Made by a program: the position numbers and the translations under genes. Shown here in pieces: positions 15,086 to 53,789 of a DNA stretch of 64,000 nt; the stretch's first letter is position 1; every line of letters begins with the position of its first letter. The notes beneath the pieces were generated by a model. That model saw only the letters and a program-made list of their open reading frames with translations. It did no database searches and was not told where the DNA came from. The stretch comes from an uncultured Lachnospiraceae bacterium (GTDB lineage Bacteria; Bacillota; Clostridia; Lachnospirales; Lachnospiraceae): positions 1 to 64,000 of the forward strand of contig CADAOY010000006.1 of assembly GCA_902789665.1 (NCBI GenBank), in the 5' to 3' direction.

Positions 15086-15233
15086 CTTAAAATGCTCTGA
15101 GAAACGATTTTCACAGATGAAGCGACCCCGAGACAAAAATGCTCTGAGAAGCGATCCTGAAGCTTGCTTCAATGAGCTTCGAAGAGTAGTTTTTGGCGAG
15201 AGGGGAGCGTATAAGCCGAAGAGTAATTTTAAG
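15086..15233 (+). repeat. nested copies of a dispersed hairpin repeat
   Basis: A complete element at 15128-15197 reads CAAAAATGCTCTGAGAAGCG, then a small TGAAGC/GCTTCA hairpin, then GAGCTTCGAAGAGTAG followed by TTTTTG. The two ends pair. An outer, older copy appears split around it: CTTAAAATGCTCT at 15086-15098 pairs with AGAGTAATTTTAAG at 15220-15233. Related copies lie near 27238-27400 and 53683-53789. Bases 15065-15278 hold nothing else recognisable. Confidence 0.75.
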
Positions 15234-15278
15234 TGACGCGAAAGGCAGCAACACAGTATAATATGAAAGGCTGAAAAA

Positions 15279-16409
15279 ATGAGAAGAAAAATGATTGCCC
15301 TTGCAATGGCAATGGCTATTACAACTACATTAATGCCGGTTTCAGTAATGGCTACAGAAACTACTGAGGCTCCGGCAGTTACAACAGAGGCTCCGGCCAC
15401 AACTGAGACTACAACAGAGGCCGCTCCGGCGACTACTGAGGCAGCACCTGCTACAGAGGCTGCTCCAGCAACAACTGAAACAACTGCAACAACTGAAGAA
15501 AAGCCTGCAACCATAGGTGATATATTCACAACAGATGATATGGCCAATAATACCAATAAGCCTTATATCTCTTTAGGTGCTGACCTTTCTGCTGAGCAGA
15601 AGGCTACAGTATTATCAATCATGGGTATTACTGAAGCTGACCTTGCCAATTATACAGTATCGTATGTAACAAATGCTGAAGAGCATGCAGCGCTTGATTC
15701 ATATATTGACAGTTCAGTAATCGGAAGCAAATCCTTATCATCAGTTATGGTTAAGGAAACTGAGTCTGGTACAGGTATCAGAGTTACTACAGTTAATATT
15801 AATTACTGTACAGTTGATATGTATCGTAATGCATTATTAACTTCCGGCGTGGAAAATGCCGATATACTTGTTGCAGGTCCTTTCCCAATTTCAGGAACAG
15901 CTGCACTTCTTGGTGCATGGAATGCTTATGAAGCAATGCATGGCAAGAAACTTGATGAGGATGCCAAGGAAGCTGCATTAAATGAAATCGTTGTAACAGG
16001 AGAACTTAATGATTCTGTTTCAGCTGAGGACAAGGAGAAACTTCAGGACTTACTTGACTATGTTAAGGCAGAGGTTGTAGCCAATGGCTTAACTGATCCT
16101 GACAAGATTAAGGAAGTAGTTCAGGAAGGTATTGAGAAATACGATATAGAACTTACAGAAGATCAGATTAAATCCCTTACAGATTTATATGGTCAGATTG
16201 GTAAACTTGATATTGATCCGGTTAAACTTTTAGAGCAGGCCGGCGATATGTATGATAAATATGGCGAAACAGTTCTGGCAGATGCCAAGGAAATGTTTGA
16301 AACCGTAGTTACTGATGAGGTAAAGGAGAGCCTTGGAGATGCATTCAGCACTATGTTCCAGAATGTATGGAATGCTGTTGTTTCCTTCTTCAAGGGTGGT
16401 AATAAATGA
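15279..16409 (+). CDS. secreted DUF1002-family protein with Thr/Ala/Pro linker
   Basis: A signal peptide covers about residues 1-25, with likely cleavage after VMA. A low-complexity linker of repeated TTEAPA/TEAAPATTE units follows to about residue 75. The DUF1002 (YpuA-like) domain starts near SLGADLSAEQKATVLSIMGI and includes VNINYCTVDMY and AGPFPISGTAALLGAWNAYE. The C-terminal third is helical and charged. The domain's function is unknown; an exported, wall-associated location is predicted. The stop overlaps the next start by four bases. Confidence 0.82.
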   Translation: MRRKMIALAMAMAITTTLMPVSVMATETTEAPAVTTEAPATTETTTEAAPATTEAAPATEAAPATTETTATTEEKPATIGDIFTTDDMANNTNKPYISLGADLSAEQKATVLSIMGITEADLANYTVSYVTNAEEHAALDSYIDSSVIGSKSLSSVMVKETESGTGIRVTTVNINYCTVDMYRNALLTSGVENADILVAGPFPISGTAALLGAWNAYEAMHGKKLDEDAKEAALNEIVVTGELNDSVSAEDKEKLQDLLDYVKAEVVANGLTDPDKIKEVVQEGIEKYDIELTEDQIKSLTDLYGQIGKLDIDPVKLLEQAGDMYDKYGETVLADAKEMFETVVTDEVKESLGDAFSTMFQNVWNAVVSFFKGGNK

Positions 16410-16870
16410 GTGAAATAATTGTTCAAAGGTGCAGACCATGGGAATGGGAAGAAGCCATGGATGTGGCCGAAAGAACTTTTATGGAGTTTGTGGCGCCCGG
16501 GTATGAGCCGGAAGGCATCAAGGGTTTCACAGACCTGGTTACGGATAAAAGAGTAAAGAATTTGTTCCTTGATGGCGACTATGTAGTATTTGTAGCCAAG
16601 GATGGGGATAAAATAGTGGGCGTTATATCCATAAGGTCCGGTAATCATATATCTTTACTTTTTGTTGATAAAGAATATCACAGAATGGGAGTTGCAAGTA
16701 AACTTGTGGCCAATGTTTCCGAATATTTAAGACTTAGGAAATTTGACCATCTTACAGTTAATGCGTCTCCTTACGGCGTCCCGTTTTATCACAGTTACGG
16801 CTTTGAAGATACCGGCGTGGAGAAATGGGACAGGGGTATGTTAACTACCCCGATGAAATTGTTACTGTAG
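16406..16870 (+). CDS. GNAT-family N-acetyltransferase
   Basis: The 154-residue protein has the GNAT core: VVFVAKDGDKIVGVISIR (beta strands 2-4), then LFVDKEYHRMGVASKLVANV, where HRMGVA is the acetyl-CoA pyrophosphate-binding R/Q-x-x-G-x-G/A motif, and a terminal YHSYGFEDTG strand-helix. It transfers an acetyl group to an unknown amine. ATGA overlap with the DUF1002 gene shows they are cotranscribed. Confidence 0.85.
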   Translation: MSEIIVQRCRPWEWEEAMDVAERTFMEFVAPGYEPEGIKGFTDLVTDKRVKNLFLDGDYVVFVAKDGDKIVGVISIRSGNHISLLFVDKEYHRMGVASKLVANVSEYLRLRKFDHLTVNASPYGVPFYHSYGFEDTGVEKWDRGMLTTPMKLLL

Positions 16871-16899
16871 TTTATATTTAACCACAACAGGGGAAATGT

Positions 16900-18174
16900 A
16901 TGGAGTACATCAGAAGTAAAAACATAGTTTTACTGATATGCGATACTTTGAAACTCATTGATCCGCGTCCTATTGAGCATGGAATGAGAACTGCCTATCT
17001 TGTTTACAAGATGCTTAGGAAAAAGGGCGGATACGAGGATTTTGAACTTGCGGACTTCGCCTTTTTGTCATGCCTTCATGATGTTGGTGCTTACAGGAGT
17101 AACAAAATCTTTGAGAAGTTTGAATATGAATTCCGTAATTATATGCCGCACAGCATATATGGCTTTTTATTCCTTAAATATATGACCCCGCTTTCAGACA
17201 AGGCCAAGATGGTGCTCTATCACAGAGTTGCATGCAGCCAGTCGGAAGATGTGGAATTTGATTATAAATTTGAAACCAGAGTTCTTACCCTGGCAGAAGC
17301 TGTGGATAATTACCACTATGCCATGGGAGAGAGTTTCGACCATACTATTTTCAGACGCCAGGAAGACATTATTTATACCAGGGAAGCTCTTGATTTACTT
17401 GATGAAATCATGAAAGAGGGAGATACTCTTGAAAGACTCAGAAACGGCGTCTACATGGATGAACTTGCAGACCTGTTTGACAGCATTCTTTTTACCAATG
17501 AGGACAAGAGAGCATATATGGAAATGCTCATGTATTCCTTGGGACTTAAGTCTGAAGGCCTTGTGGTAGATGCGGCAGTAACCCTTGCAGTTACTGAAGA
17601 ACTCGCTGCCAAAATCGGCATGCAGCAGGAAGATATGGACATCCTTTATTATGCAGCGCTCGTTCATGACCTTGGAATGCTCACCATCCCAAGAGAGATT
17701 CTTGATGTGCGTCGTAAACTTACAAAAGATGAAAGAATGATAGTCAGAACTCATGTGGATGCCACAGAGAATCTGATTAAAAACAGGGTTGCTCCTGATA
17801 TAGTAAAAGTGGCAGTTGCCCACCATGAAAGAATGGATGGTTCCGGTTATCCTAAGGGACTTAAGGAGCATCAGATGACCATGAGTCAGAGTATTCTGCA
17901 GGTAGCTGACACAGTTACAGCCCTTACAGATGAAAGAGTACACCGTCCTCCTCTTAGCAAAGAGAAGATTATTGATGTACTTAAGGAAGAAACCAGAGAT
18001 GGCAGATTCAAGAGCAGGGTAGTTTCCAATTTTATTGACTCCTATGATGAAATCATGGAAGTAGTTAAGGAAAGAACCAATGTCATCCTGGAGAATTATA
18101 AGAAATTACAGGCTAACTACGAAGCCGTCAGCAAGATGCTGACAAACCCAAAAGAAACAGAAGAAACGGAGTAA
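16900..18174 (+). CDS. tandem HD-domain phosphodiesterase with HD-GYP motif
   Basis: The N-terminal half has an HD-like site (His60-Asp61 in CLHDVGAY) and looks like a diverged HD domain. The C-terminal half carries a full HD-GYP signature: His256-Asp257 in VHDLGM, then HHERMDGSGYPKG at 308-320 and QVADTVTALT. HD-GYP enzymes hydrolyse cyclic di-GMP. No membrane segment or receiver domain is visible, so regulation probably goes through the N-terminal half or partners. The YesL-like gene follows four bases after the stop. With the GGDEF protein at 24120, the window encodes both making and breaking of cyclic di-GMP. Confidence 0.87.
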   Translation: MEYIRSKNIVLLICDTLKLIDPRPIEHGMRTAYLVYKMLRKKGGYEDFELADFAFLSCLHDVGAYRSNKIFEKFEYEFRNYMPHSIYGFLFLKYMTPLSDKAKMVLYHRVACSQSEDVEFDYKFETRVLTLAEAVDNYHYAMGESFDHTIFRRQEDIIYTREALDLLDEIMKEGDTLERLRNGVYMDELADLFDSILFTNEDKRAYMEMLMYSLGLKSEGLVVDAAVTLAVTEELAAKIGMQQEDMDILYYAALVHDLGMLTIPREILDVRRKLTKDERMIVRTHVDATENLIKNRVAPDIVKVAVAHHERMDGSGYPKGLKEHQMTMSQSILQVADTVTALTDERVHRPPLSKEKIIDVLKEETRDGRFKSRVVSNFIDSYDEIMEVVKERTNVILENYKKLQANYEAVSKMLTNPKETEETE

Positions 18175-18178
18175 ATAA

Positions 18179-18829
18179 ATGGCTAAAATCGGCGAAGGGG
18201 CCATATCTTCAGGCCTTGGAAGATTTTTCGACATAATTATTATAGGTATTCTTACCTTTGTATGTTCACTTCCTGTTATTACAATGGGAGCAGCCATTAC
18301 AGCTGCATATGATGTTTATATAAGAATGGCGCTTGATAAGGACAGCCATGTGGTAAGTACTTATTTCAGGGCTTTTGGCAAGAACTTTCTTAAAGCAACG
18401 GTTATTCATCTTATTGTTTTGGTGGCGGCAGCTTTTGTAGGGGCGTCAGCTTATCTTTTCTTTTTCGGAGTACTGGAAGTTAGTTCCGGCATGAGAACAG
18501 TAGGTCTTGTGCTTACTATTGTTATGGCTTTGGTAGTTGCCATGACCTTCCTTTATGTATATGCCCTTCAGGCAAGATTTGAAAATTCAGTCGTAAGAAC
18601 AATTATAAATGCTTTCTTTATAGCACTTGCCCAGTTCCCAAAGACATTTGCAATGCTCCTTGCTAACGGCGTATGTGCTGCTCTTTGCGTGCTTTTATAT
18701 GGCCTTGCTCCGCTTTGGCTTATCATAGATTTCTCAATTATTTATTATTTCTCAGCCAAAGGAATGGTTAAGGCTTTCGGTCTTTATGGAGATAAGGAAG
18801 CAGCTGGTGAAGATTTGCACAAAGAATAA
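18179..18829 (+). CDS. DUF624/YesL-family membrane protein
   Basis: The 216-residue protein shows the YesL pattern: an N-terminal GRFFDIIIIGILTFVCSLPVITMGAAITA, a soluble stretch with HVVSTYFRAFGKNFL, then three or four further hydrophobic helices. In Bacillus, YesL is near carbohydrate-uptake genes, and DUF624 proteins are often linked to ABC sugar transporters; an MsmX-type ATPase gene follows here. Its biochemical role is unknown. It starts four bases after the HD-GYP gene. Confidence 0.8.
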   Translation: MAKIGEGAISSGLGRFFDIIIIGILTFVCSLPVITMGAAITAAYDVYIRMALDKDSHVVSTYFRAFGKNFLKATVIHLIVLVAAAFVGASAYLFFFGVLEVSSGMRTVGLVLTIVMALVVAMTFLYVYALQARFENSVVRTIINAFFIALAQFPKTFAMLLANGVCAALCVLLYGLAPLWLIIDFSIIYYFSAKGMVKAFGLYGDKEAAGEDLHKE

Positions 18830-18869
18830 AATTAACCAATGTGCAATCTGTATGCAAAATTGGGTTAAA

Positions 18870-18898
18870 TTGGCAATTTTTACAATGTGAAATAAAAT
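18870..18898 (+). promoter_or_regulatory. promoter of the MsmX-type ATPase gene, flanked by inverted repeats
   Basis: TTGGCA at 18870-18875, a 17-base spacer and TAAAAT at 18893-18898 form a good sigma-A promoter, leaving a leader of about 95 bases. A perfect 10-bp inverted repeat brackets it (AATTAACCAA at 18830-18839 and TTGGTTAATT at 18901-18910), with a partial third copy (GGGTTAAATT) at the -35 box. These could be operator half-sites. Confidence 0.65.
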
Positions 18899-19000
18899 AT
18901 TTGGTTAATTGTGTTATGGCATTTTTGGGCTGTAACCTTTATAATTTTTGATAGTACGGTTGCTATGACCGAAACATTTATTTCTAGGAGGAAAATTAAT

Positions 19001-20113
19001 ATGGCAGGGTTATCTTTGAAGAACATCTGTAAGGTTTATCCTAACGGTTATGAAGCTGTTAAGGATTTCAATCTTGAAATTGCAGATCAGGAATTCATAA
19101 TTTTCGTAGGACCTTCAGGATGTGGTAAGTCTACTACACTTCGTATGATCGCAGGTCTTGAGGACATCAGTTCTGGTGAACTTAGAATCGGTGACAGACT
19201 TATCAATGATGTAGAGCCTAAGGATAGAGATATTGCGATGGTATTCCAGAGCTACGCTCTTTATCCACATATGACAGTATATGAGAACATGGCATTTGGT
19301 CTTAAGTTACGTAAGGTACCTAAAGATGAAATCGATAAGATGGTTAAGGAAGCTGCAAAAATCCTTGACTTAACTCCACTTCTTGATCGTAAGCCAAAGG
19401 CTTTATCAGGTGGACAGAGACAGAGAGTTGCTATGGGACGTGCTATCGTTCGTAATCCTAAGGTATTCCTTATGGACGAGCCTCTTTCAAACCTTGATGC
19501 AAAACTTCGTGTACAGATGAGAATTGAGATCGCTAAGCTTCATCAGAGACTTGGCACAACCATCATTTACGTTACACATGACCAGACAGAGGCTATGACT
19601 CTTGGTACAAGAATCGTAGTTATGAAGGATGGTGTTATCCAGCAGGTTGATACACCTCAGAACCTTTATGATAAGCCATGCAACTTATTCGTTGCTGGTT
19701 TCATGGGATCACCACAGATGAACTTCTTAGACGCTATCGTTGAAGTATCAGGTGAGACAGCTTACCTTAACGTAGCTGGACATCAGATTCCACTTCCACC
19801 AGCTAAATCAAAGAAGCTTATTGATGGCGGTTATGATGGAAGATCCGTAACATTCGGTATCCGTCCTGAAGATGTATATGATTCAGAGATGTATGTTGAA
19901 ACATCACCTATGAGCGTATTCGAATCAACAATTAAGGTTTACGAGCTTCTTGGTGCTGAAGTATTCTTATACTTCGATCTTGAGATGTTCCCAATGACAG
20001 CAAGAGTTGATTCAAGAACAACTGCTAGACCTGGTGATACAATTAAGTTTGCTCTTGATGTTGAGAAGATTCACGTATTCGATAAGGAAACAGAGCAGAT
20101 TATTACAAACTAG
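19001..20113 (+). CDS. ABC sugar-transporter ATPase, MsmX/UgpC type
   Basis: The 370-residue protein has Walker [10 protein letters not shown] at 37-45, the Q-loop FQSYALYPH, signature LSGGQRQR, Walker B VFLMDEP, and a C-terminal TOBE-like regulatory domain with IRPEDVY. This is the MsmX/UgpC subfamily, which energises several carbohydrate importers in Firmicutes. No permease or binding protein is adjacent, so it is probably a shared ATPase. The frame extends upstream to 18911, but TAGGAGG lies just before the ATG at 19001, giving the family start MAGLSLKNI. It has its own promoter and terminator and looks highly expressed from its codon choice. Confidence 0.9.
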
Positions 20114-20138
20114 TTTGTAATGTGGAATGAGACTTAAA

Positions 20139-20167
20139 GGGGTGCACAGTTTGTGCACCCTTTTTTT
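20139..20167 (+). terminator. intrinsic terminator of the MsmX-type gene
   Basis: GGGTGCACA pairs perfectly with TGTGCACCC across a 3-base loop, followed by seven T residues. Confidence 0.92.
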
Positions 20168-20183
20168 CAAAGAATGAAAATAT

Positions 20184-20310
20184 CCCCCTCCGGCCTTCGG
20201 CCGGAGGAGGATGAATGAGAAAAAAGCCATCCACTCCGGCCTTCGGCCGGAGAGGACTGGCAGTAAGGAATGAAGGAAGGAATCGGCCTTCGAGCGAAGC
20301 GGATGGCCTG
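20184..20310 (+). repeat. GC-rich hairpin cluster with CCGGCCTTCGGCCGG cores
   Basis: Two near-identical hairpins (CCTCCGGCC/GGCCGGAGG at 20187-20207; CTCCGGCC/GGCCGGAG at 20234-20252, extended by CC/GG) share a TTC-centred loop. A third, shorter stem (CTTCG/CGAAG at 20288-20299) follows. GCCATCC at 20226-20232 pairs with GGATGGC at 20301-20307, which could fold the second and third into one larger structure. The GC content is far above the surroundings. It sits between the MsmX terminator and the thioesterase start. Confidence 0.65.
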
Positions 20311-20317
20311 TATGTGT

Positions 20318-20710
20318 ATGAAAAGTATTGAAGAAATCAGAGAGTTTTTCGCTAAGGATGCCTTTGCAACCAATGCGGGGGGATATATTGAAGAAGTAGG
20401 TGATAATTATTCAGTATGCTCTATGCCTGTGGATGAAAGACATGTTAATGCTGTTGGAAATGTAATGGGAGGCGTGTATTTCACGCTGGCGGATTTTGCC
20501 TTTGCTGTTGCAACCAACCATGAAAAGCCTAATGTGGTATCACTGGATTCCACCATTAATTTCCTTGGAATTGCAAAGGGAAAGAAAATTTTTGCGAAGG
20601 CTGAGTGCGTTAAGGATGGAAGAACCACCTGCGTATATGTGATCACCATCACAGATGAAGGTGGTAAGGAAGTAGCGAGAGTTACAACTACAGGATATAA
20701 GTTTGTTTAA
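20318..20710 (+). CDS. PaaI-family hotdog thioesterase
   Basis: The hotdog fold is recognisable from HVNAVGNVMGGVYFTLADFAFAVATN, the PaaI-type acyl-CoA thioesterase signature with its conserved Asn and Gly and an active-site Asp. Residues before MKSIEEIREFF come from the hairpin repeat, so I place the start at the ATG at 20318; in-frame ATGs at 20270, 20303 and 20312 are alternatives, and none has a good ribosome site. The protein probably hydrolyses an acyl- or aryl-CoA ester. The methyltransferase gene follows eight bases after the stop. Confidence 0.78.
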   Translation: MKSIEEIREFFAKDAFATNAGGYIEEVGDNYSVCSMPVDERHVNAVGNVMGGVYFTLADFAFAVATNHEKPNVVSLDSTINFLGIAKGKKIFAKAECVKDGRTTCVYVITITDEGGKEVARVTTTGYKFV

Positions 20711-20718
20711 GGATATTC

Positions 20719-22113
20719 ATGAATAGAACGGACCTTCCAATAGAATATGCCAGAAAAATGGAAGAACTCTTAGGGGATGAATATGATGCTTATTTGGCAT
20801 CTCTTGATAAGCCATTACATAAGGGGCTCAGGGTTAATTCCCTTAAGGCGGATAGTGCCTCTGTGATGAAACTTCTTGGCAGGGATTTAAAGCCTGTACC
20901 CTGGGCATCTTTGGGATATTATTATAATGAGGATGAGATTAAGCCCGGGAAAAGTCCTTATTTTGAGGCAGGACTTTATTATATTCAGGAGCCTTCGGCC
21001 ATGTGCGTTGCAGAAATCGCCATGGATGCGATAAAGGAGATTGTGCCTGATAAGAGCGAACTTAAAGTGCTTGATTTATGTGCAGCTCCCGGCGGCAAGA
21101 CTACCTATCTTGCGGCTTTGATGGAGAATAAGGGACTTCTTGTTGCTAATGAAATAAATGCAGGAAGAGCGGCTATTCTTTCGCAGAATGTTGAAAGATG
21201 CGGGATTACCAATACTGTTGTAATTTCGGAAAATCCCGTAAAACTTGCTGACAGGTTTGAGAATTTCTTCGATTTGATTGTAGTTGATGCACCGTGCTCC
21301 GGAGAGGGAATGTTCCGTAAGGAAGAAGATGCTCTTAGTATGTGGAGCCCTGATAATGTTAAGATGTGCGCTGACAGGCAGAAAGAGATAACCCATGCGG
21401 CGTCCAAAATGCTTAAAGGCACCGGAAGAATTGTTTATTCAACCTGTACTTTTGCAATGGAAGAAGATGAGAATCTTATAAAGGATTTCCTGGATACGCA
21501 TGAAGATTTCAAAACAATCCCAAGCCCTTATAAGAAATATTTTAAAGAAGGCTTCGAACCTGTAGGGAACGGAATGAGACTTTTTCCACATTTAATAGAC
21601 GGGGAAGGGCATTTTGCCTGCGTTCTTGGAAGAGATGAAGAAGTGGAAGAGACCAGGCCTTACAAGAAGAAGGGCAATGACAAGAATACACTTGCGATGA
21701 TGCAGGTTGCAAAGAAGTTTTTTAAGGAAAACTTTAGTGAAGGTTTTTGGGAAAGATTTGAAGGCGGGGATTTTATCAGTTTTGGAGATAATTTATATCT
21801 GATGCCGATGGCCATGAATCTTGATAAATTAAAGGTTTTAAGGCCGGGACTGGAACTTGGAACGGTTGTGAAAGAAAGATTTATACCTTCTCACGCACTT
21901 TCTTTGATTATTAGTCCAAAAGATGTTAAAATTAGTTTGAGTATGGCCGAAGATGAGGTGACTAATTATCTGAAAGGTATTACCCTTAATGTGGATGAGC
22001 CGGGTAAGGACGGCTGGGCGCTTATGTGCGTGGACGGATATTCAATTGGCTGGGGGAAAAAGGTCGGAAATACAATAAAGAACCACTATCCTAAGGGACT
22101 TAGGTGGAATTAG
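20719..22113 (+). CDS. RsmF/RsmB-type rRNA (cytosine-5) methyltransferase
   Basis: The 464-residue protein belongs to the NOL1/NOP2/Sun family: YIQEPSAMCVAEI, SAM-binding VLDLCAAPGGKTTYLA, DAPCSGEGMFRK with the releasing Cys, and YSTCTFAMEEDE with the catalytic Cys. The length and the C-terminal PUA-like region (LRPGLELGTVVKERFIPSHAL, then WALMCVDGYSIGWGK) are closest to RsmF-like enzymes that methylate 16S rRNA. The exact cytosine is not predictable. Confidence 0.88.
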   Translation: MNRTDLPIEYARKMEELLGDEYDAYLASLDKPLHKGLRVNSLKADSASVMKLLGRDLKPVPWASLGYYYNEDEIKPGKSPYFEAGLYYIQEPSAMCVAEIAMDAIKEIVPDKSELKVLDLCAAPGGKTTYLAALMENKGLLVANEINAGRAAILSQNVERCGITNTVVISENPVKLADRFENFFDLIVVDAPCSGEGMFRKEEDALSMWSPDNVKMCADRQKEITHAASKMLKGTGRIVYSTCTFAMEEDENLIKDFLDTHEDFKTIPSPYKKYFKEGFEPVGNGMRLFPHLIDGEGHFACVLGRDEEVEETRPYKKKGNDKNTLAMMQVAKKFFKENFSEGFWERFEGGDFISFGDNLYLMPMAMNLDKLKVLRPGLELGTVVKERFIPSHALSLIISPKDVKISLSMAEDEVTNYLKGITLNVDEPGKDGWALMCVDGYSIGWGKKVGNTIKNHYPKGLRWN

Positions 22114-22125
22114 AAAGGTTAATAA

Positions 22126-23076
22126 ATGAAAGTATATATTGATGGCAGTGAAGGCACAACAGGTCTTCGTATTAATGAAAGATTTACGGGAAGGGATGAT
22201 ATCGAGATTTTGAAGATTAATCCGGAACTTCGTAAGGATCCTGAAGAAAGAAGGAAATTCATTAATGCATCTGATGTAACATTCCTTTGTCTGCCGGATG
22301 CAGCTTCCATTGAGGCTGTAACTCTTATAGATAAGGATAATGACCATACAGTAATTATTGATGCTTCGACAGCTCACAGAACTGCTGAGGGCTGGGCTTA
22401 TGGTCTTCCGGAACTTGGAAAGAATTTCCTTGAAAATATAAAGACAAGTAACCGAATTGCCAACCCGGGATGCTATGCAACAGGATTTTTGCTTGATGTA
22501 TATCCGATGATTGCGATGGATTTAATTGGTAAGGATTATCCTGTGTGCGTTAATGCTTTATCCGGTTATTCGGGAGCTGGCAAAAAGGGAATCGCGATGT
22601 ATGAGGCTGAGGATAAGAGAGAGGATTTATATTCTCCAAGAATGTATGCTTTATCCCAGAATCATAAGCATCTTAAGGAAATGCAGGCTGTATCGGGCCT
22701 TTCGAAGACTCCGCTTTTCGTGCCTGTTGTAGATGATTATTACTGCGGAATGATAGTAACATTCCCGGTTTATGCTGACCTTATGAAGAAGAAAATGACT
22801 CCGGCTGAGGTGAGGGATGCGTTCGCCGGGTATTTTGACTCTCAGGAATTCATCCATGTTATGCCTTATGGTTCAGAGGAAGAATATGGTTCATTCCTTG
22901 CAGCCAATATGATGGCGGGAAGAGATGATGCTTTAATATATGTAACCGGTAATGATGACAGAATACTCGTTTCCACAGTTATTGATAACCTTGGTAAAGG
23001 CGCATCAGGCGCCGCCATTGAATGCATGAATATCCGTATGGGCTTACCGGCCGCTACGGGATTAAATATAAAATAA
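22126..23076 (+). CDS. argC: N-acetyl-gamma-glutamyl-phosphate reductase, short type
   Basis: The 316-residue protein is the compact type-2 ArgC: MKVYIDGSEGTTGLRI at the NADP-binding start, FLCLPDAASIEA, and the catalytic Cys116 in NPGCYATGF. It reduces N-acetylglutamyl phosphate to the semialdehyde, step three of arginine synthesis. It stands apart from other arg genes, as type-2 ArgC often does. A short AAAGGT site precedes the ATG; the gene is 12 bases after the methyltransferase and 13 before plsC, so likely part of one transcript. Confidence 0.93.
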   Translation: MKVYIDGSEGTTGLRINERFTGRDDIEILKINPELRKDPEERRKFINASDVTFLCLPDAASIEAVTLIDKDNDHTVIIDASTAHRTAEGWAYGLPELGKNFLENIKTSNRIANPGCYATGFLLDVYPMIAMDLIGKDYPVCVNALSGYSGAGKKGIAMYEAEDKREDLYSPRMYALSQNHKHLKEMQAVSGLSKTPLFVPVVDDYYCGMIVTFPVYADLMKKKMTPAEVRDAFAGYFDSQEFIHVMPYGSEEEYGSFLAANMMAGRDDALIYVTGNDDRILVSTVIDNLGKGASGAAIECMNIRMGLPAATGLNIK

Positions 23077-23089
23077 GGACTTAAGGATA

Positions 23090-23908: not shown

Positions 23909-23916
23909 GTGATAAT

Positions 23917-24099
23917 ATGGGTAGTGCAACTTCCTGTGATACATGTCAGTATTATACATATGATGAGGATATGGAAGAATATGTATGCGACATGGATATG
24001 GATGAGGATGATTACGGCCGTTTGGTGGGCGGTAATTTTAAGGGGTGTCCTTATTATAAAGACGGGGATGAATATAAAGTTGTGAGACATCAAATGTAA
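23917..24099 (+). CDS. DUF6472 small cysteine-containing protein
   Basis: The 60-residue acidic protein has four cysteines (Cys7, Cys10, Cys24, Cys44) and ends CPYYKDGDEYKVVRHQM, the conserved end of the DUF6472 family found in Lachnospiraceae and relatives. The CxxC plus two further Cys suggest a structural metal (inferred). Function is unknown. It sits between plsC and a diguanylate cyclase gene. Confidence 0.82.
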   Translation: MGSATSCDTCQYYTYDEDMEEYVCDMDMDEDDYGRLVGGNFKGCPYYKDGDEYKVVRHQM

Positions 24100-24119
24100 T
24101 TGGGAAGCGGGAGAAGGTT

Positions 24120-27219: not shown

Positions 27220-27237
27220 TCTAAAAACCGCCCCTCA

Positions 27238-27310
27238 CCAAAAACTACTCTTCGAAGCTCATTGCAGCAAGCTGCACAGGATCGCTTCTCAGAGCATTTT
27301 TGTCTCGGGG
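27238..27310 (-). repeat. dispersed hairpin repeat, inverted copy
   Basis: Read on the minus strand, this copy has the same order as the 15128-15197 element: CAAAAATGCTCTGAGAAGCG, a hairpin with GCAGCTTGCTGC in place of GAAGCTTGCTTC, then GAGCTTCGAAGAGTAG and TTTTTGG. The loop-proximal stem has changed on both sides, keeping pairing. Confidence 0.78.
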
Positions 27311-27328
27311 CGTGGGTTGTGAGAGCAA

Positions 27329-27400
27329 GGACAAAATGCTCTCCAAAAAGCGATTTGGTGACTTGCACCACTGAGCTTTTGGGAGAGTAGTTTTGGACGA
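27329..27400 (+). repeat. dispersed hairpin repeat, direct copy of a second subtype
   Basis: This copy begins GGACAAAATGCTCTCC and ends AGTAGTTTTGGACGA. AAAAGC pairs with GCTTTT and GGTG with CACC, where the other subtype has GAAGC/GCTTC and a TGAAGC/GCTTCA inner stem. It lies 18 bases from the inverted copy, so the two point away from a shared centre. It ends 23 bases before the DUF951 gene. Confidence 0.78.
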
Positions 27401-27423
27401 AGCTCGAGCTATGAAAGGGACAA

Positions 27424-27600
27424 ATGTTAGATATAAAAGTAGACGACATAGTTACATTTAAGAAAAAACACCCTTGCGGGGGAAAAGAGTGGAAGGTGCT
27501 GAGGACGGGAGCTGATTATAAGCTTGAGTGCACCACATGTAATCATCAGATTATGATTACGAGAGCCACTCTGGAAAAAAGCCTTGCAAGAAAAGGATGA
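27424..27600 (+). CDS. DUF951-family small protein
   Basis: The 58-residue protein reads MLDIKVDDIVTFKKKHPCGG, then KEWKVLRTGADYKLECTTCN and a short basic end. This is the DUF951 pattern (V.F.K.HPCG..W.VLR.GAD..L.C..C...), with Cys18, Cys36 and Cys39 as possible metal ligands. DUF951 genes commonly lie directly upstream of rpsF in Clostridia and Bacilli, as here. AAAGGGA precedes the ATG. Function is unknown; the fold is likely a small beta barrel. Confidence 0.88.
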   Translation: MLDIKVDDIVTFKKKHPCGGKEWKVLRTGADYKLECTTCNHQIMITRATLEKSLARKG

Positions 27601-45297: not shown

Positions 45298-45326
45298 AGT
45301 TTTAGGAAAGGTACGGACTCTTAGTT

Positions 45327-46832
45327 ATGAATTTAAAACCGGAAGAGATCAGTTCTGTAATTAAAGAACAAATTGAGAGATACGAAGATCGCTTAGAGAT
45401 TTCTAACGTGGGTAACGTAATTCAGGTAGCTGACGGTATTGCCAGAGTTCATGGTCTTGAACAGGCCATGCAGGGCGAACTTCTTCAGTTCCCTGGTGAT
45501 GTATACGGAATGGTTATGAACCTCGAGGAAGACAACGTTGGTGTTGTTCTTCTTGGTGATCATAAGAATATTAACGAGGGCGATGTGGTTAAGACCACCG
45601 GCCGTGTTGTTGAGGTGCCTGTTGGTGACGCTCTTTTAGGAAGAGTTGTTAATGCATTAGGTCAGCCAATCGACGGCAAGGGCGTTATCGTAACAGATAA
45701 GCATCGTCAGATTGAAAGAGTTGCTTCAGGCGTTATTACCAGAAAGAGTGTTGATACTCCTCTTCAGACTGGTATTAAGGCTATCGACTCAATGGTTCCT
45801 ATTGGTAGAGGACAAAGAGAACTTATTATCGGTGACAGACAGACTGGTAAAACAGCCATCGCCATCGATACCATCATCAACCAGAAGGGCCAGGGTGTTA
45901 AATGTATTTATGTAGCAATCGGACAGAAGGCTTCAACAGTTGCTTCAATTGTTAAGACTTTGGATGAGTTCGGTGCTATGGCATATACAACTGTAGTTGC
46001 GGCTACAGCCAGTGAACTTGCACCACTTCAGTACATCGCTCCATATTCAGGATGTGCTATTGGTGAAGAGTGGATGGAAAACGGAGAAGATGTTCTTGTT
46101 ATCTACGATGACTTAACAAAGCATGCAGCAGCATACAGAACACTGTCACTTCTTCTTAGAAGACCACCAGGAAGAGAAGCTTACCCGGGTGATGTTTTCT
46201 ACCTTCATTCAAGACTTTTGGAGAGAGCTGTTCGTATGAGCGAAGAATACGGCGGAGGTTCTCTTACAGCCCTTCCTATCATTGAGACACAGGCAGGCGA
46301 CGTATCAGCATATATTCCTACCAATGTAATTTCTATTACTGATGGTCAGATTTATCTTGAAACAGAAATGTTCAATGCAGGTTTCCGTCCTGCTGTTAAT
46401 GCTGGTTTGTCTGTATCAAGAGTTGGTGGCGCTGCTCAGATTAAGGCTATGAAGAAGATTGCAGCTCCTATCAGAGTTGAGCTGGCACAGTACAGAGAGC
46501 TGGCGGCTTTTGCACAGTTTGGTTCTGAACTTGATGACGATACCAAAGAGAAACTTGCTCAGGGTGAAAGAATCAGAGAGATTCTTAAACAGCCTCAGTA
46601 TAAGCCAATGCCTGTACAGTATCAGGTTATCATTATCTTCGTGGCAACCAAAAAATATCTTCTTGATGTTCCTACATCAGAGATTACAAGATTTGAGAGT
46701 GAATTCTTCGAATTCCTTGATACACAGTATCCTGAATTAGTTACATCAATTGCAGATAATAAGGTTATATCTGAGGATGATGAGGCTAAACTTATCAGAG
46801 CTATTGAAGATTTTAAGAAAGATTTTTCATAA
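45327..46832 (+). CDS. atpA: ATP synthase F1 subunit alpha
   Basis: The 501-residue protein has Walker [10 protein letters not shown] at 169-177, the [29 protein letters not shown] region with the arginine finger domain, and the standard N-terminal beta barrel. It carries the non-catalytic nucleotide sites. Confidence 0.97.
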
Positions 46833-46855
46833 AATTAAGAGACGGGTAAAATAAT

Positions 46856-47722
46856 ATGGCGTCAATGAGAGACATAAAGAGGCGCAGGGCCAGTGTACAA
46901 AGCACAGGTCAGATTACAAAGGCCATGAAGCTTGTTGCAACTGTTAAGCTTCAGAAAGCCAAGAACCGCGCCCTTCAGTCAAAAGAATATTTTAATTGTA
47001 TGTATAAGACGGTGATTTCGCTTTTAGCCAAGTCAGCCAATACCAACAATATATATACGAAAGAGTCCGAGTCCAAGCGTAAGGCTATCGTGGTTATCAC
47101 ATCTAACAGAGGTCTTGCAGGCGGATATAACTCAAATGTTGTAAAGTTAATTACACAAAATGAGGAACTCATTAAGGAAGATCTGGACATATATGCAATT
47201 GGTAAGAAAGGTCAGGAATTCCTGGCAAGACGCGGCTACAATATCGTGGAAGACCGTTCAGAACTCATGGAAGAGTTCACTTATGCAGATGCAATTAAGC
47301 TTTGTAATAAGCTCCTTGCTTCCTATGAGAAGGGAGAAGTTGGGGAAATATATATTGCTTACACCAATTTCAAGAATACAGTAAGTCATATACCAACCCT
47401 GCTTAAATTACTTCCGATTCTGGAAACAGATGATGACTCAATGGATGAAGGCAAGAATGATGATTTAATTATGAATTTTGAGCCGGATGACGAGGAAGCA
47501 TTAAAATTGATTATTCCTAAGTATGTGGCAAGCCTTCTTCACGGTGCTTTAATTGAAGCAACCGCAGCCGAGAACGGCGCGAGAATGCAGGCCATGGATT
47601 CAGCTACCAACAATGCTGAAGAAATGATAGACAAGTTAACCCTTAAGTATAACAGAGCAAGACAGGGCTCTATCACTCAGGAATTAACAGAAATTATTGC
47701 AGGTGCGGAAGCAATTTCATAA
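46856..47722 (+). CDS. atpG: ATP synthase F1 subunit gamma
   Basis: The 288-residue protein has the N-terminal helix SMRDIKRRRASVQSTGQITKAMK and the C-terminal helix with DSATNNAEEMIDKLTLKYNRARQGSITQELTEI (split here only in description), which form the central rotor coiled coil, around an alpha/beta core with ITSNRGLAGGYN. Confidence 0.96.
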   Translation: MASMRDIKRRRASVQSTGQITKAMKLVATVKLQKAKNRALQSKEYFNCMYKTVISLLAKSANTNNIYTKESESKRKAIVVITSNRGLAGGYNSNVVKLITQNEELIKEDLDIYAIGKKGQEFLARRGYNIVEDRSELMEEFTYADAIKLCNKLLASYEKGEVGEIYIAYTNFKNTVSHIPTLLKLLPILETDDDSMDEGKNDDLIMNFEPDDEEALKLIIPKYVASLLHGALIEATAAENGARMQAMDSATNNAEEMIDKLTLKYNRARQGSITQELTEIIAGAEAIS

Positions 47723-47732
47723 GCACCTTTAA

Positions 47733-49157
<1,425 letters not shown>

Positions 49158-49169
49158 TCGGAGTAATAT

Positions 49170-49574
49170 ATGAGTGATAATGATTTATTCGACTTAAGAG
49201 TCGTTACCCCGGAAAGAGTTTTCTACGAGGGTAAGGTTCGAATGGTTGAGTTTAATACAACAGAAGGTGAGATAGGTATTTATAAGAATCATATTCCTCT
49301 CACCTGTATAGTAGATCCGGGTATTCTGACAATTACGGAGCCGGAGGGTCCTAAGAATGCAGCCCTTCATGCAGGTTTCGCCCAGATAATGCCAGACAAG
49401 GTAACTATTCTAGCTGAGATTATAGAGTGGCCGGCAGAAATCGACAGGGAAAGAGCTGAAAAAGCTAAAGAGAGAGCTACCGAAAGACTTGCCAGCAAGT
49501 CACCGGATATTGATGAACTTAGGGCTGAAGTTGCACTTAAAAAAGCTTTATGCCGTTTGAATTCACTTGGTTAA
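49170..49574 (+). CDS. atpC: ATP synthase F1 subunit epsilon
   Basis: The 134-residue protein has the beta-sandwich N-terminal domain (LRVVTPERVFYEGKVRMVEF, TTEGEIGIYKNHIPL) and a C-terminal helical hairpin. It couples rotor and inhibits hydrolysis. It ends the operon, 12 bases downstream of atpD. Confidence 0.95.
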   Translation: MSDNDLFDLRVVTPERVFYEGKVRMVEFNTTEGEIGIYKNHIPLTCIVDPGILTITEPEGPKNAALHAGFAQIMPDKVTILAEIIEWPAEIDRERAEKAKERATERLASKSPDIDELRAEVALKKALCRLNSLG

Positions 49575-49578
49575 ATAT

Positions 49579-49618
49579 ATGGGGATGTATAATCTACATC
49601 CCCATCTTTGACTTTTTC
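49579..49618 (+). terminator. terminator of the ATP synthase operon
   Basis: ATGGGGATGTA pairs perfectly with TACATCCCCAT across a 5-base loop; the T-run is interrupted (CTTTGACTTTTTC). Confidence 0.75.
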
Positions 49619-49641
49619 TTCCTGTTTGAGGACACACCTTT

Positions 49642-52176
49642 ATGAAGATGAAGAGATATATAATCATAAGCCTTAGAGTGCTTCTGGCTATAGTGACTTT
49701 CACAGGTGGGCTGTTATTTTTCGATATGTTATTTAACCATTCACACGTATCGGAATATGCTTATCTTGGGTCACCGACTCTGCCGGTACTTGATTTCGTT
49801 TATGAGGGAATTGACTGCAACAGAGTCCAGGGCTGTAAGAAAAAAATGGATGTATCTTATATGCGTTCATATCTTACACCTATAAATGAAGACAGAACTT
49901 TAAGTGTAAAGATTGATAAAAAAGAACAGAAAATAGCACATATAAGTTATGAGGTAAGGTCATTAGATGGAGAGAGACTTATTGAAGACCATGAAGTGAC
50001 GGAATATTCAGACCTTAATAACCTTGTGACTTTTAATATATTATTTCAGGATCTGTATGAAGAGGGAAAAGAATATTCCCTTATGATAGTATTATCTACA
50101 GTGGATATGGGAGATGTTTACTATTATACGCAGATAACAAAACTCCCTGATAATGGATTTATGGAGAAAGTTAAATTTGCCAACTTCTTCTCAGATACCA
50201 TATATGAAGGAGTTAATAATCCTGAAGATTTAATAGTTTACTTAGAGAGTGATTCTACGGGCGATAATTCAAGTTATGGTTACGTGGACATTCACAGTTC
50301 CTATAATCAGGTAATCATGAAAGATCTGGATGTATTCAGATATCCGGATGTGGTTACCTATATTGAGGATATTAACGGGGATATAGTTAATGTTTCTCTT
50401 GAGTACTTAACAACAATTGGAGAGAGTAAGGATACCAGGTATTTTAAAACAAAGGAGTCCTTTAGAATAAAAACAGGTATCGAAAGATTATATCTTTTGG
50501 ACTATACCAGAATCATGGATGAGATTATTCAGAAGGACAGGGAACTTTATTATGGCAGCACCATAGTAATAGGTATTGAATCCCATACACCGGAACTTAT
50601 TTTATCCGACAATGAAGACATAGTAGCCTTTGTGCATGAGGGCGCGCTCTTTACATGTCACAGTAAAGACAATAATATATCGGAAGTTTTCTCTTTATAT
50701 GATGAAGAGATGGACTTAAGAACCTTAAGGGATGATGTGGATATCAAGGTCCTTCGCCTTGGTGAAAACGGGGACATGATTTTTGCCGTATATGGCTATA
50801 TCCCAAGAGGAGTTCATGAAGGAGAGGTGGGAATAATCCTTTATTCCTATACTGCGGAATATAATGTGGCAGACGAAATCCTATTTATTCCATATAATAA
50901 GTCGCCATCACTTCTTAAAGACAACGTGGGACGCGGCCTGTTTCTTGCAGACAATGAGGAACTCTTCTGTTACATGGACAGAACCATGTACAGCATCAAT
51001 CTTTCAAATCTTGATGTGACAGAACTTATTACCGAGATTGATGACCAGGGCTTCAAAATGTCCGTCGACGGCTCCATGATAAGCTACCTCGTTAAGCCTG
51101 TTAATGGCAAAAGCTCCGAGGTGAAACTCTTAAATCTTCGAACCGGAGGTATCTCTTCCATAAAGGTTAAGGATACGGAAGCAGTTTATCCCCTTGGCTT
51201 TATGGAGAATGACCTGATATACGGAATTGCCAACAGGGCGGAGATTTATACAGACAGTTATGGCAATGAAACTGCTCCGATGTATGCAATCAGAATCAGA
51301 GGAACCGATGGTAAAATCATTAAGAGTTATGAAGAGCCGGGCAAATATGTTACCAATATAGAAATAAATGGTAATATGATTGTACTTGAAAGAGTAGAGA
51401 TGCAGGGCGGGGCTTTTGGCAAAGCTTCTCCTGATACTATTGTAAATAATTATTCCGAAGAGGTAAGTAATAACTTCTTTGAAAAAATTGTTACGGAAAA
51501 CTATGAAACAATAGTTCAGCTTCACCTGGCAAATGAGCTTAATGCCACATCATTAAAGAAGATGACGGCAGAGCATCAGCTCCATGATGGCGTTAAGGCC
51601 ATAAATATAGACTTAAGTTCTGACATTACCAACTACTATGTATATCATGGAGGTCTGGTAAAAGGCGTATATTCAGATATCTCCCAGGCGGTAAGAAAAG
51701 CCTATGAACTGGGTGGCCTGGTGGTTGATGATAAAGGCGCCTACATATGGAGAAAGGGAAATCTTCATAAGTCTAATCAGATAATGGCAATTGAGGCCAA
51801 GTCAGTTAATGATGATGAGGGTGATTTGGAAGTTTGCCTTGAACAGATGCTTGCCCTTGAAGGTTATACGGCTGACATAGGCTATATGATAGACAGGGGT
51901 GACAAGGCAGGAGACATCCTTTCTGAAAAACTTAAGGATGTGACGGTTCTTGATTTAACACTTTGTTCCATGGATATGGTACTTTACTATGTAAATCAGG
52001 ACATTCCTGTACTGGCAGTCGGAGATAATAATCAGTCATTTTTGATTATTGGTTTTAATGAATATAATGTGGTCCTTTTAGATCCGGTTGAGGGCAGCAT
52101 ATATAAAATGGGCATGGGGGATGCAACCGCCATGTTCGTAAGAAACGGCAACAAATTCATGACATACGTTAGATAA
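49642..52176 (+). CDS. membrane-anchored protein with C-terminal degenerate C39-like domain
   Basis: The 844-residue protein has one N-terminal membrane helix (about residues 5-28). A long extracellular part of unknown fold follows, including a region of repeated beta-rich segments (about 330-580) that resembles a propeller. The last 115 residues look like a C39 papain-type peptidase: Cys732 in VCLEQMLALEGY and the Asp of VVLLDPVEG are kept, but the usual His position reads NNQSFLIIGF, with no His. It is thus probably a non-catalytic, binding version. It lies between the ATP synthase operon and pncB. Confidence 0.7.
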   Translation: MKMKRYIIISLRVLLAIVTFTGGLLFFDMLFNHSHVSEYAYLGSPTLPVLDFVYEGIDCNRVQGCKKKMDVSYMRSYLTPINEDRTLSVKIDKKEQKIAHISYEVRSLDGERLIEDHEVTEYSDLNNLVTFNILFQDLYEEGKEYSLMIVLSTVDMGDVYYYTQITKLPDNGFMEKVKFANFFSDTIYEGVNNPEDLIVYLESDSTGDNSSYGYVDIHSSYNQVIMKDLDVFRYPDVVTYIEDINGDIVNVSLEYLTTIGESKDTRYFKTKESFRIKTGIERLYLLDYTRIMDEIIQKDRELYYGSTIVIGIESHTPELILSDNEDIVAFVHEGALFTCHSKDNNISEVFSLYDEEMDLRTLRDDVDIKVLRLGENGDMIFAVYGYIPRGVHEGEVGIILYSYTAEYNVADEILFIPYNKSPSLLKDNVGRGLFLADNEELFCYMDRTMYSINLSNLDVTELITEIDDQGFKMSVDGSMISYLVKPVNGKSSEVKLLNLRTGGISSIKVKDTEAVYPLGFMENDLIYGIANRAEIYTDSYGNETAPMYAIRIRGTDGKIIKSYEEPGKYVTNIEINGNMIVLERVEMQGGAFGKASPDTIVNNYSEEVSNNFFEKIVTENYETIVQLHLANELNATSLKKMTAEHQLHDGVKAINIDLSSDITNYYVYHGGLVKGVYSDISQAVRKAYELGGLVVDDKGAYIWRKGNLHKSNQIMAIEAKSVNDDEGDLEVCLEQMLALEGYTADIGYMIDRGDKAGDILSEKLKDVTVLDLTLCSMDMVLYYVNQDIPVLAVGDNNQSFLIIGFNEYNVVLLDPVEGSIYKMGMGDATAMFVRNGNKFMTYVR

Positions 52177-52194
52177 ATTTAAGGAGGAGAAGAT

Positions 52195-53646
52195 ATGCAA
52201 AGCAATCTTACTTTATTAACAGATTTGTATGAATTAACAATGATGCAGGGTTATTTTAAGCACGAGGAGCAGAATGTGGAGGTTATTTTTGATGCCTTCT
52301 TCAGAACCAACCCGATGGAGAGTGGTTACGCTATTTCTGCAGGTCTTGACCAGGTTATCGAGCTTATTAACAACCTTCACTTCGAAGAAGATGACATTAA
52401 TTATTTAAGGGGGCTGGGGATTTTTGAAGAGGATTTCCTTGATTATTTAAAGGATTTCAAGTTCACCGGCGACATCTATGCTATTGAAGAGGGTTCGGTA
52501 ATGTTCCCAAGAGAGCCGATGATTAAGGTTATTGCACCTATTATGCAGGCTCAGCTTATTGAAACCGCAGTCCTTAATATTATTAACCACCAGAGCCTGA
52601 TTGCCACCAAGGCAAGCCGTGTATGCTATGCAGCTGAGGGCGATGGAATCATGGAATTTGGTTTAAGAAGAGCTCAGGGTCCGGATGCCGGCGTATATGG
52701 CGCAAGGGCAGCAGTTATCGGTGGCTGCATTGGAACATCATGCGTGCTTACAGGCCAGATGTTTGACATTCCGGTTAAGGGCACACATGCTCACAGCTGG
52801 ATTATGAGCTTCCCTGATGAATATACAGCATTCAGGGCATATTCAAAGATTTATCCGAATGCCTGCCTGCTTTTGGTAGATACATATGATACCCTTAAAT
52901 CCGGCGTTCCAAATGCCATCAGGGTATTCAAGGAAATGAGAGAGGAAGGCATCGAACTTAAGAATTACGGTATCAGACTTGACTCCGGCGACCTTGCTTA
53001 TCTTTCCAAGGAAGCAAGAAAGATGCTTGATGCAGAAGGCTTTACAGATGCAATCATCTCAGCATCCAATGACCTTGACGAATTCTTAATTGCATCTCTC
53101 AAGACGCAGGGCTGCAAAATCACCTCCTGGGGTGTTGGTACACATCTTATCACATCCAAGGACTGGCCATCATTTGGCGGTGTATATAAACTTGCAGCAA
53201 TTAAGGGCGAGGACGGAAGATTCATTCCAAAGATTAAGTTATCAGAAAATACAGAGAAGATTACAAACCCTGGCAACAAGACAATCTACAGAATCTACGA
53301 CAAGGAAACCGGCAAAATCAGAGCCGACCTTATCGCACTTGTGGATGAAGTATATGATGAGAGCAAGAACCTGCTTTTGTTTGACCCACAGGAGCCATGG
53401 AAGAAGACAGTGCTTAAGGGTGGCACATATACAATGAGAGAGATGATGGTTCAGGTATTCAAGGGCGGCGAGTGTGTATACAAGACTCCTAAGGTAATGG
53501 ATATCAGAGCATACTGCCAGAGAGAACTTGAAACTTTATGGCCTGAGACCAGACGTCTCGTTAATCCTCATCAGGTACACGTTGACTTATCAGGCAGATT
53601 ATATGATATCAAGATGGCACTGCTTGATGAGATGAGTATGCAATAA
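52195..53646 (+). CDS. pncB: nicotinate phosphoribosyltransferase
   Basis: The 483-residue protein starts with LLTDLYELTMMQGYFKHE and carries the family blocks FDAFFRTNPMESGYAI, FGLRRAQGPDAG, GTHAHSWIMSF, RLDSGDLAYLS and ISASNDLDE. It joins nicotinate to phosphoribosyl pyrophosphate for NAD salvage, which also supplies the cofactor of the sirtuin at 26494. AAGGAGG precedes the ATG. A hairpin repeat starts 37 bases after the stop. Confidence 0.95.
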   Translation: MQSNLTLLTDLYELTMMQGYFKHEEQNVEVIFDAFFRTNPMESGYAISAGLDQVIELINNLHFEEDDINYLRGLGIFEEDFLDYLKDFKFTGDIYAIEEGSVMFPREPMIKVIAPIMQAQLIETAVLNIINHQSLIATKASRVCYAAEGDGIMEFGLRRAQGPDAGVYGARAAVIGGCIGTSCVLTGQMFDIPVKGTHAHSWIMSFPDEYTAFRAYSKIYPNACLLLVDTYDTLKSGVPNAIRVFKEMREEGIELKNYGIRLDSGDLAYLSKEARKMLDAEGFTDAIISASNDLDEFLIASLKTQGCKITSWGVGTHLITSKDWPSFGGVYKLAAIKGEDGRFIPKIKLSENTEKITNPGNKTIYRIYDKETGKIRADLIALVDEVYDESKNLLLFDPQEPWKKTVLKGGTYTMREMMVQVFKGGECVYKTPKVMDIRAYCQRELETLWPETRRLVNPHQVHVDLSGRLYDIKMALLDEMSMQ

Positions 53647-53682
53647 AGAGGCGAGTGCAATACAGCCTGGCTACGAGCGCCA

Positions 53683-53789
53683 GGACAAAATGCTCTTACC
53701 AAAGCGATTTGGTGACTTGCACCACTGAGCTTTGGGAAGAGTAGTTTTGGACGACGCGCGAGTATCGCAGAATGGAGAGCATTTTGTCC
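53683..53789 (+). repeat. dispersed hairpin repeat, full copy plus inverted fragment
   Basis: A full copy of the second subtype lies at 53683-53754: GGACAAAATGCTCT, CCAAAGC pairing with GCTTTGG, GGTG/CACC, AGTAGTTTTGGACGA. Bases 53775-53789 (GAGAGCATTTTGTCC) are the reverse complement of the element's first 15 bases, a truncated inverted copy. The arrangement lies between pncB and the ileS promoter. Confidence 0.78.

What the first reader, a model, noticed from the sequence alone, without database searches (positions are those of the whole stretch)
15086..53789. A dispersed hairpin repeat family with compensatory base changes
Four full copies (15128-15197, 27238-27310 inverted, 27329-27400, 53683-53754) and fragments (15086-15098 with 15220-15233; 53775-53789) share the ends GACAAAATGCTCT and AGAGTAGTTTTTGG and a GCGAT...GAGC core. 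The stems vary in step: GAAGC/GCTTC in one subtype becomes AAAGC/GCTTT or AAAAGC/GCTTTT in the other, and the inner stem changes between TGAAGC/GCTTCA, GCAGC/GCTGC and GGTG/CACC. Such paired changes argue that the fold itself is selected or copied. All copies lie between genes. The family looks like REP/BIME elements known from Proteobacteria, but I recognise no named equivalent.
Basis: seen in the sequence. Interest (0 to 1): 0.72.

Follow-up and report, generated by a model that had tools for sequence, protein, structure and literature searches.

The report
Mobile RNA-like hairpins between bacterial genes
The window carries copies of an 88-letter folding repeat that has recently inserted itself between genes in two sister species of Lachnospiraceae bacteria, and whose tip resembles that of a known but unexplained family of bacterial structured RNAs that also looks like a jumping repeat in related species.

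Summary
A covariance model from the four window copies finds 22 strong copies in this genome and 18 in a sister species (UBA4338), none as strong in the other 59 relatives searched. The stems covary. The repeat moves: at nine sites one sister has a 92-200 bp insert with hairpin(s) and the other the empty site. It is not a REP/BIME: no GTAG foot, and the one IS200-like transposase gene found is flanked by a different repeat. New link: the apical core (GCGA-stem-CTTG-stem-AATGAGC) recurs in other Lachnospiraceae genera at the tip of hairpin 1 of Clostridiales-1-type RNAs (RF01699); reciprocal models recover each other only moderately. In congeners Clostridiales-1 is itself a dispersed repeat (up to 21 matches), with near-identical copies flanked by direct repeats and a site empty in relatives. 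Best reading: a hairpin-only, trans-mobilised relative of Clostridiales-1-like mobile structured elements. The mobilising enzyme is unknown.

The parts
15125..15206 (+). full hairpin copy 1 (subtype with CCCCGAGAC...GGCGAGAGGGG ends)
15074..15112 (+). left half of an outer copy interrupted by copy 1
   Evidence: by eye: same compound at G000 C8:44154, intact outer type in L093/L111
15210..15249 (+). right half of the interrupted outer copy
   Evidence: by eye
15067..15258 (.). whole insert (192 bp) absent from sister genome G022 at the orthologous spacer between a methionyl-tRNA synthetase-type gene and a DUF1002 gene
   Evidence: neighbours by Pfam
27228..27311 (-). full hairpin copy 2
27322..27407 (+). 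full hairpin copy 3 (GGTG-ACTTG-CACC tip)
27220..27424 (.). insert (205 bp against 5 bp in G022) with copies 2 and 3 in opposite orientations, starting just after the stop codon of the Sir2-family gene
53676..53761 (+). full hairpin copy 4, shared with G022 (L082)
53776..53799 (-). inverted left-half fragment, not in G022
13063..13063 (.). empty site: G022 carries a 128-bp insert with a hairpin here (L081), G000 none

Best explanation
The hairpins are a non-autonomous mobile repeat. Each insert carries an 82-90 nt core that folds, on the strand with the CTTG loop, into one long stem with a fixed interior: AAAA/TTTT stem, an invariant G-U pair, a bulged G, a CTCT/AGAG stem, a variable middle stem closed by GCGA/TGAGC (readable as tandem G-A pairs), and a CTTG loop. 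A trans-acting enzyme recognises this fold, not fixed end sequences, and pastes copies into spacers, mostly at the 3' ends of genes. The apical core is shared with hairpin 1 of Clostridiales-1-type structured elements, which are also dispersed and recently mobile in related species; the window family is most likely a hairpin-only offshoot of that kind. Shown: copy number, covariation, restricted distribution, insertion polymorphism, shared core. Inferred: common descent with Clostridiales-1, recognition of the folded single strand, mobilisation in trans. Unknown: the enzyme and whether the intermediate is DNA or RNA.
For: 22 strong copies in G000, 18 in G022, none as strong in 59 other relatives or in the other 396 genomes of a family sample that did not hold G022 (only 11 candidates per genome scored). 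Nine filled/empty site pairs, four filled in G000 and five in G022. Covariation, 0 of 500 shuffles as high on four of five measures. G-U pair in 38 of 38 distinct copies; the CTTG strand folds better in both copies folded on both strands (-31.5 v -23.8; -38.6 v -29.8 kcal/mol). Core pattern in 20 of 396 family genomes besides G000, reversed control in 0 of 397; of 30 loci printed 22 have it within a hairpin by eye, 8 look like chance. RF01699 matches 7 of 12 such loci at E <= 1, 2 above the gathering score. The window-family model hits 13 of 18 such loci; the reciprocal model has its 8 best hits in 227 kb of G000 stretches on hairpin copies. Clostridiales-1 in congeners: 7 of 31 genomes above cut-off, 21 matches in G018; copies 96-98% identical at different loci; direct repeats (by eye) and empty orthologous sites.
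Against: Eight loci with copies give no RF01699 match even at E <= 10 and G000 has none at E <= 0.1; hairpins 2 and 3 of Clostridiales-1 are not seen by eye; the reciprocal model finds only 1 of 4 window copies, at E 0.85, and 8 of 18 copies outside it. The window model hits only 1 of 21 loci chosen by RF01699 alone and misses 5 of 18 chosen by the core pattern, so the shared core could be convergent. Outside the invariant G-U pair, A-C cells outnumber G-U in helices 2-4 (7 against 3), though 5 of the 7 come from one misaligned inner-stem type. No constant target duplication: above the 95% null at 3 of 9 sites only. Target preference differs: 9 of 11 printed G018 Clostridiales-1 copies follow a T run, 6 of 39 here. 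No mobilising gene found.
Confidence: 0.58

Rival explanations
1. A mobile REP-like or MITE-like palindrome of purely DNA kind, spread by an IS transposase, whose CTTG/tandem-GA tip resembles Clostridiales-1 only by convergence.
For: Long palindromes, both orientations relative to genes (of 39 copies 19 antisense and 8 sense to co-directional genes, 11 convergent, 1 divergent), nested and half copies, no RF01699 score.
Against: No conserved terminal tips (CCCCGAGAC, AGCGCNAGGAC and GCTGCCGAGC types), no fixed target duplication, conserved unpaired positions and an invariant G-U pair, core shared with other genera in the same orientation.
Confidence: 0.25
2. A REP/BIME family mobilised by the resident RAYT-like Y1 transposase.
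For: One Y1_Tnp match each in G000 and G022 (246-aa ORF in G000); the hairpin holds AGTAG in 38 of 39 copies.
Against: The gene in G000 is flanked by another repeat (GGGACGGGG...TGCACATT type) and the nearest hairpin copy is about 15.7 kb away; 15 other congeners have Y1 matches without strong hairpin copies, and G018, G029 and G026 (84-91% complete) have Clostridiales-1 copies without a Y1 match; GTAG lies in the stem, not at the foot.
Confidence: 0.06
3. A cis-acting RNA element (mRNA 3'-end stabiliser, processing site or bidirectional terminator) kept by selection, not a mobile element.
For: Strong fold, sits mostly at 3' ends of genes, 1 of 39 between divergent genes.
Against: Both orientations; absent from the same spacers in a sister species whose flanks are mostly 88-98% identical; no strong copy in 29 other congeners; the terminator scan has one call within a copy, on the reverse strand of copy 3.
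Confidence: 0.09

Closest known systems
Clostridiales-1 RNA (Rfam RF01699; Weinberg et al. 2010, PMC2864571, passages seen)
   Same: Hairpin 1 tip GCGA-stem-CTTG-stem-AATGAGC in relatives such as L167 (135 bits), same orientation; multicopy and dispersed in congeners
   Different: Window copies lack hairpins 2 and 3 and the closing stem (by eye), give no RF01699 match, and do not prefer T tracts
REP / BIME with RAYT (PMC3733652, passages seen)
   Same: Small dispersed palindromic repeats in spacers
   Different: No GTAG foot, longer, fewer copies, no cognate RAYT found
TIRtron/TIRYT elements (PMC3733652, passages seen)
   Same: The resident Y1 gene has this look, with GGGACGGGG-type flanking repeats (by eye)
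   Different: Those repeats are unlike the hairpin family
CGTC-tagged REPs (PMC3733652, passages seen)
   Same: Palindromic repeats without a dedicated transposase; the reverse strand here often has CGTCC
   Different: CGTC is inside the stem-loop and absent from the subtypes with GGCGAG and AAGCGA

Membership tests
REP/BIME (GTAG REP) | GTAG tetranucleotide at the foot of the hairpin | tested here: not met
   AGTAG is in 38 of 39 copies but inside the long stem
REP/BIME (GTAG REP) | cognate RAYT gene flanked by the repeat | tested here: not met
   the one Y1_Tnp match of G000 is flanked by another repeat; the G022 gene's flanks were not read
REP/BIME (GTAG REP) | 20-40 bp unit in high copy number | tested here: not met
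   82-90 nt core, 22 strong copies
MITE | conserved terminal inverted repeat tips | tested here: not met
   three different end types; little conservation beyond the core
MITE | constant-length target-site duplication | tested here: not met
   overlap 12, 7, 6 at three of nine sites, 1 or less at six
MITE | insertion polymorphism between close relatives | tested here: met
   nine filled/empty pairs
MITE | autonomous partner with the same ends | not tested
   none noticed among ORFs listed near copies in L094, L097, L098; not searched genome-wide
Clostridiales-1 RNA (RF01699) | score above the gathering threshold (48 bits) | tested here: not met
   no match at E <= 10 in 8 loci with copies; 0 in G000 at E <= 0.1
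Clostridiales-1 RNA (RF01699) | hairpin 1 apical core as in relatives with full Clostridiales-1 | tested here: met
   core pattern and crossed models; strength moderate
Clostridiales-1 RNA (RF01699) | hairpins 2 and 3 and closing stem | tested here: not met
   not seen by eye in the flanks printed for 39 copies; no Rfam match
Clostridiales-1 RNA (RF01699) | transcribed as an RNA | not testable with these tools
   no expression data

The most novel reading that the evidence does not exclude
Clostridiales-1 RNA is not an ordinary small RNA gene but a family of SINE-like bacterial mobile elements: structured RNAs copied to new sites in trans, with variable target duplications and tandemly repeated 3' tail modules. 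The window hairpins are its most reduced form, a single hairpin that has kept the recognition tip and still moves.
Probability: 0.22. Interest if true: 0.85.

Novelty: new variant of a known kind. Interest (0 to 1): 0.58.

Why it matters
An orphan Rfam family without an assigned function, in what I read, gets a testable nature: a mobile structured element. The hairpin-only family, with filled and empty sites in two sister species, gives natural pairs for measuring what such insertions do to transcripts and for identifying the enzyme that moves them.

Tried and rejected
Rfam on the window: nothing at gathering threshold. A loose DNA pattern with 2 mismatches was wrongly spaced and returned mostly chance. 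Viral contigs with two exact patterns: 0. Plasmids and phages with one Clostridiales-1-like hairpin (from L169): no match at E <= 1e-3. Weak model hits L079 and L080 do not look like the hairpin and L137 is another hairpin (by eye). TSD scoring with lenient penalties was uninformative and was redone with stricter ones. RAYT idea rejected. Literature: five papers in the held library contain RF01699 or Clostridiales-1 (listing); of these I saw passages of PMC2864571 only. In the rows shown I saw nothing on Clostridiales-1 mobility or on this hairpin; most of the longer lists were capped. An earlier count said 13 G018 copies over the cut-off; the listing shows 15, and the entry says about 19 G022 copies where one search lists 18 strong ones.
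Full report
What is there. A covariance model from those four (R1) finds 22 strong places in the window's own genome G000 at E <= 3.6e-17, out of 40 listed at E <= 1; of the other 18, 15 are opposite strands of the same copies and 3 are weak separate places. Over 61 genomes (own, 30 congeners, 30 of the wider family and order) only G000 and one congener, G022, have strong matches; I count 18 in G022. G021 and G049 have one match each at E 0.006-0.008 that does not look like the element. That search used stricter filters that lose weak matches. In 397 genomes of a family sample (R2; G022 not in it, 11 candidates scored per genome) only G000 has strong matches; three others have one match of 31-33 bits.

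Anatomy. 39 copies (22 from G000 and 17 of the 18 from G022; the second of an overlapping tandem pair was not in the alignment) were aligned and modelled (R2). On 38 distinct rows 88.0% of cells pair against 81.1% in shuffles, 12 pairs change on both sides against 8.3, 68 cells against 22.9, covariation score 0.176 against 0.073, none of 500 shuffles as high; the number of further pair types is not above the shuffles (78 of 500). The alignment was fitted to the structure, which favours it, and the outermost helix is only 42% paired in this register. A G-U pair is present in 38 of 38, next to a bulged G. Outside that pair, helices 2-4 hold 3 G-U and 7 A-C cells, 5 of the latter in one pair that the GGTG-type inner stem misaligns, so the case for one working strand rests on the invariant G-U and on folding energies, where the CTTG strand folds better in both copies tested. 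Ends come in three types and inner stems in several, in varied combinations; one copy (C3:207681) joins a left half of one type to a right half of another and folds poorly.

It moves. The compared G000 and G022 flanks are mostly 88-98% identical, with single pieces at 86.7 and 84.3%. Nine sites have a filled and an empty state: window 15067-15258, window 27220-27424, C9:37136 and C3:299851 filled in G000 and empty in G022; window 13063, L084, L088, L090 and L091 filled in G022 and empty in G000. A tenth (C3:294150) is complex, because G022 also lacks the neighbouring 1 kb with a gene, and was left out. Five G000 sites (C3:60126, 197796, 207681, 210849, C8:44154/44311) gave no G022 match with the flanks used and L089 gave no G000 match; G022 is 84% complete. 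Inserts are 92-200 bp and carry variable sequence outside the core. Nested copies occur, by eye, at 15074-15249, C8:44154 and C1:30153. At two shared sites (C9:38284 with L093, C1:374352 with L111) the species carry different subtypes. Target duplication: overlaps 12, 7 and 6 exceed the 95% null at three of nine sites, six have 1 or less. Of 39 copies 1 lies between divergent genes, 11 between convergent genes, 19 antisense and 8 sense to co-directional genes; 5 overlap a mechanical ORF of 90 aa or more (some copies are orthologous, so these are not independent).

What it is related to. Two weak R2 hits in other genera share the apical core GCGA-stem-CTTG-stem-AATGAGC with different outer stems. 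The pattern GCGAN{4,12}CTTGNNNNAATGAGC occurs in 21 of 397 family genomes (G000 and 20 others) and its reversed control in none. Of 30 loci printed, 22 have it within a hairpin by eye, one of them in G000 and some of them near-duplicates, and 8 look like chance. Of 12 such loci given to Rfam, 7 match Clostridiales-1 RNA (RF01699) at E <= 1, two above its gathering score (135 and 109 bits). Eight loci with the hairpins of G000 or G022 do not match RF01699 (E <= 10). Models were then crossed. The window-family model over 39 loci (118 kb) gives 16 matches at E <= 1; it hits 13 of 18 pattern-chosen loci and 1 of 21 loci chosen by RF01699 alone; 15 of the 16 lie on the element or a second copy of the core, and one (L163:1664) I did not resolve. 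The reverse model, from 18 hairpins of other genera (R3), has 10 matches at E <= 10 in 227 kb (16 stretches of G000), and the best 8 (E 0.0009-0.63) are hairpin copies, of 18 copies present; in the window it finds only copy 1, at E 0.85. I take this as moderate evidence of common descent. The core reads as tandem G-A pairs with a CUUG loop, recurrent RNA motifs by recall, so convergence stays possible.

Clostridiales-1 as a mobile repeat. Weinberg et al. 2010 list it as probably an RNA and probably not cis-regulatory (PMC2864571, table passage). In the genus 13 of 31 genomes have a match at E <= 0.1 and 7 of 31 one over the cut-off, with 21 matches in G018 (15 over the cut-off), 7 in G029, 0 in G000 and two weak ones in G022. 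In G014 two copies at different loci are 97.6% identical over 212 nt with sharp ends; by eye they are flanked by direct repeats of 9 (ATGAATATG) and 12 (TTTATATAATAT) bases. At the first site, upstream of a tilS-like gene (named by eye), four of the six other congeners printed (G003, G004, G009, G025) show no such element in the 300 nt shown, G012 none in the roughly 240 nt before its contig end, and G024 has a different hairpin insert; at the second, upstream of a flavodoxin-like gene, six of seven others printed show none, the seventh (G029) being misplaced by my script. Further congeners with a tilS match were not printed. In G018 several copies carry tandem repeats of the last module, and 9 of the 11 copies printed, of 21 matches, follow a run of five T, against 6% of random windows; 6 of 39 window-family copies do. 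Some copies are older: L200, L201 and L212 sit at one orthologous place in three species.

Not a REP. G000 has one Y1 transposase match (246-aa ORF), flanked by a GGGACGGGG...TGCACATT repeat, like the TIR-flanked genes of PMC3733652 (passages). 17 of 31 genus genomes have Y1 matches, 15 of them without strong hairpin copies; G018, G029 and G026 have Clostridiales-1 matches but no Y1 match, within their 84-91% completeness.

Verdict. The family is a lineage-restricted, recently mobile hairpin repeat that behaves like a non-autonomous element but fails the tested defining features of REP and MITE families, and it is probably a hairpin-only relative of Clostridiales-1-type elements. The mobilising enzyme and the nature of the intermediate are open.

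Noticed in passing
L110 (G000 C3:75905-76645) and flanks: A RAYT/TIRYT-like Y1 transposase gene flanked by a separate short repeat (GGGACGGGG / TGCACATT look); a copy of the hairpin at C3:60126 sits among sequences of this second kind.
   Followed up: partly
L186 and L199 (G014): Two near-identical 212-nt Clostridiales-1 copies just behind TATAAT-like boxes, with 9- and 12-base flanking direct repeats.
   Followed up: yes
L215, L217, L219, L220 (G018): Clostridiales-1 copies followed by two or more tandem repeats of their last hairpin or tail module.
   Followed up: no
L231 (G024), spacer before the tilS-like gene: A different hairpin insert with ATGAGC and GCGAAT strands at the spacer where G014 has Clostridiales-1 (by eye).
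   Followed up: no
L197, L207 (G022 C4:57165 and 55677): Two near-identical 130-nt divergent Clostridiales-1-like elements 1.5 kb apart in the sister genome, possible intermediates.
   Followed up: partly
window 27408-27426: The insert abuts the next small gene (by eye MLDIKVDDIV...), which starts with ATG here and TTG in G022; the insert end supplies GAAAGGG before the ATG.
   Followed up: no
window 53815-53843: A strong promoter-like site (TTGACA-17-TAAAAT) lies between copy 4 and the class I tRNA synthetase gene at 53889.
   Followed up: no
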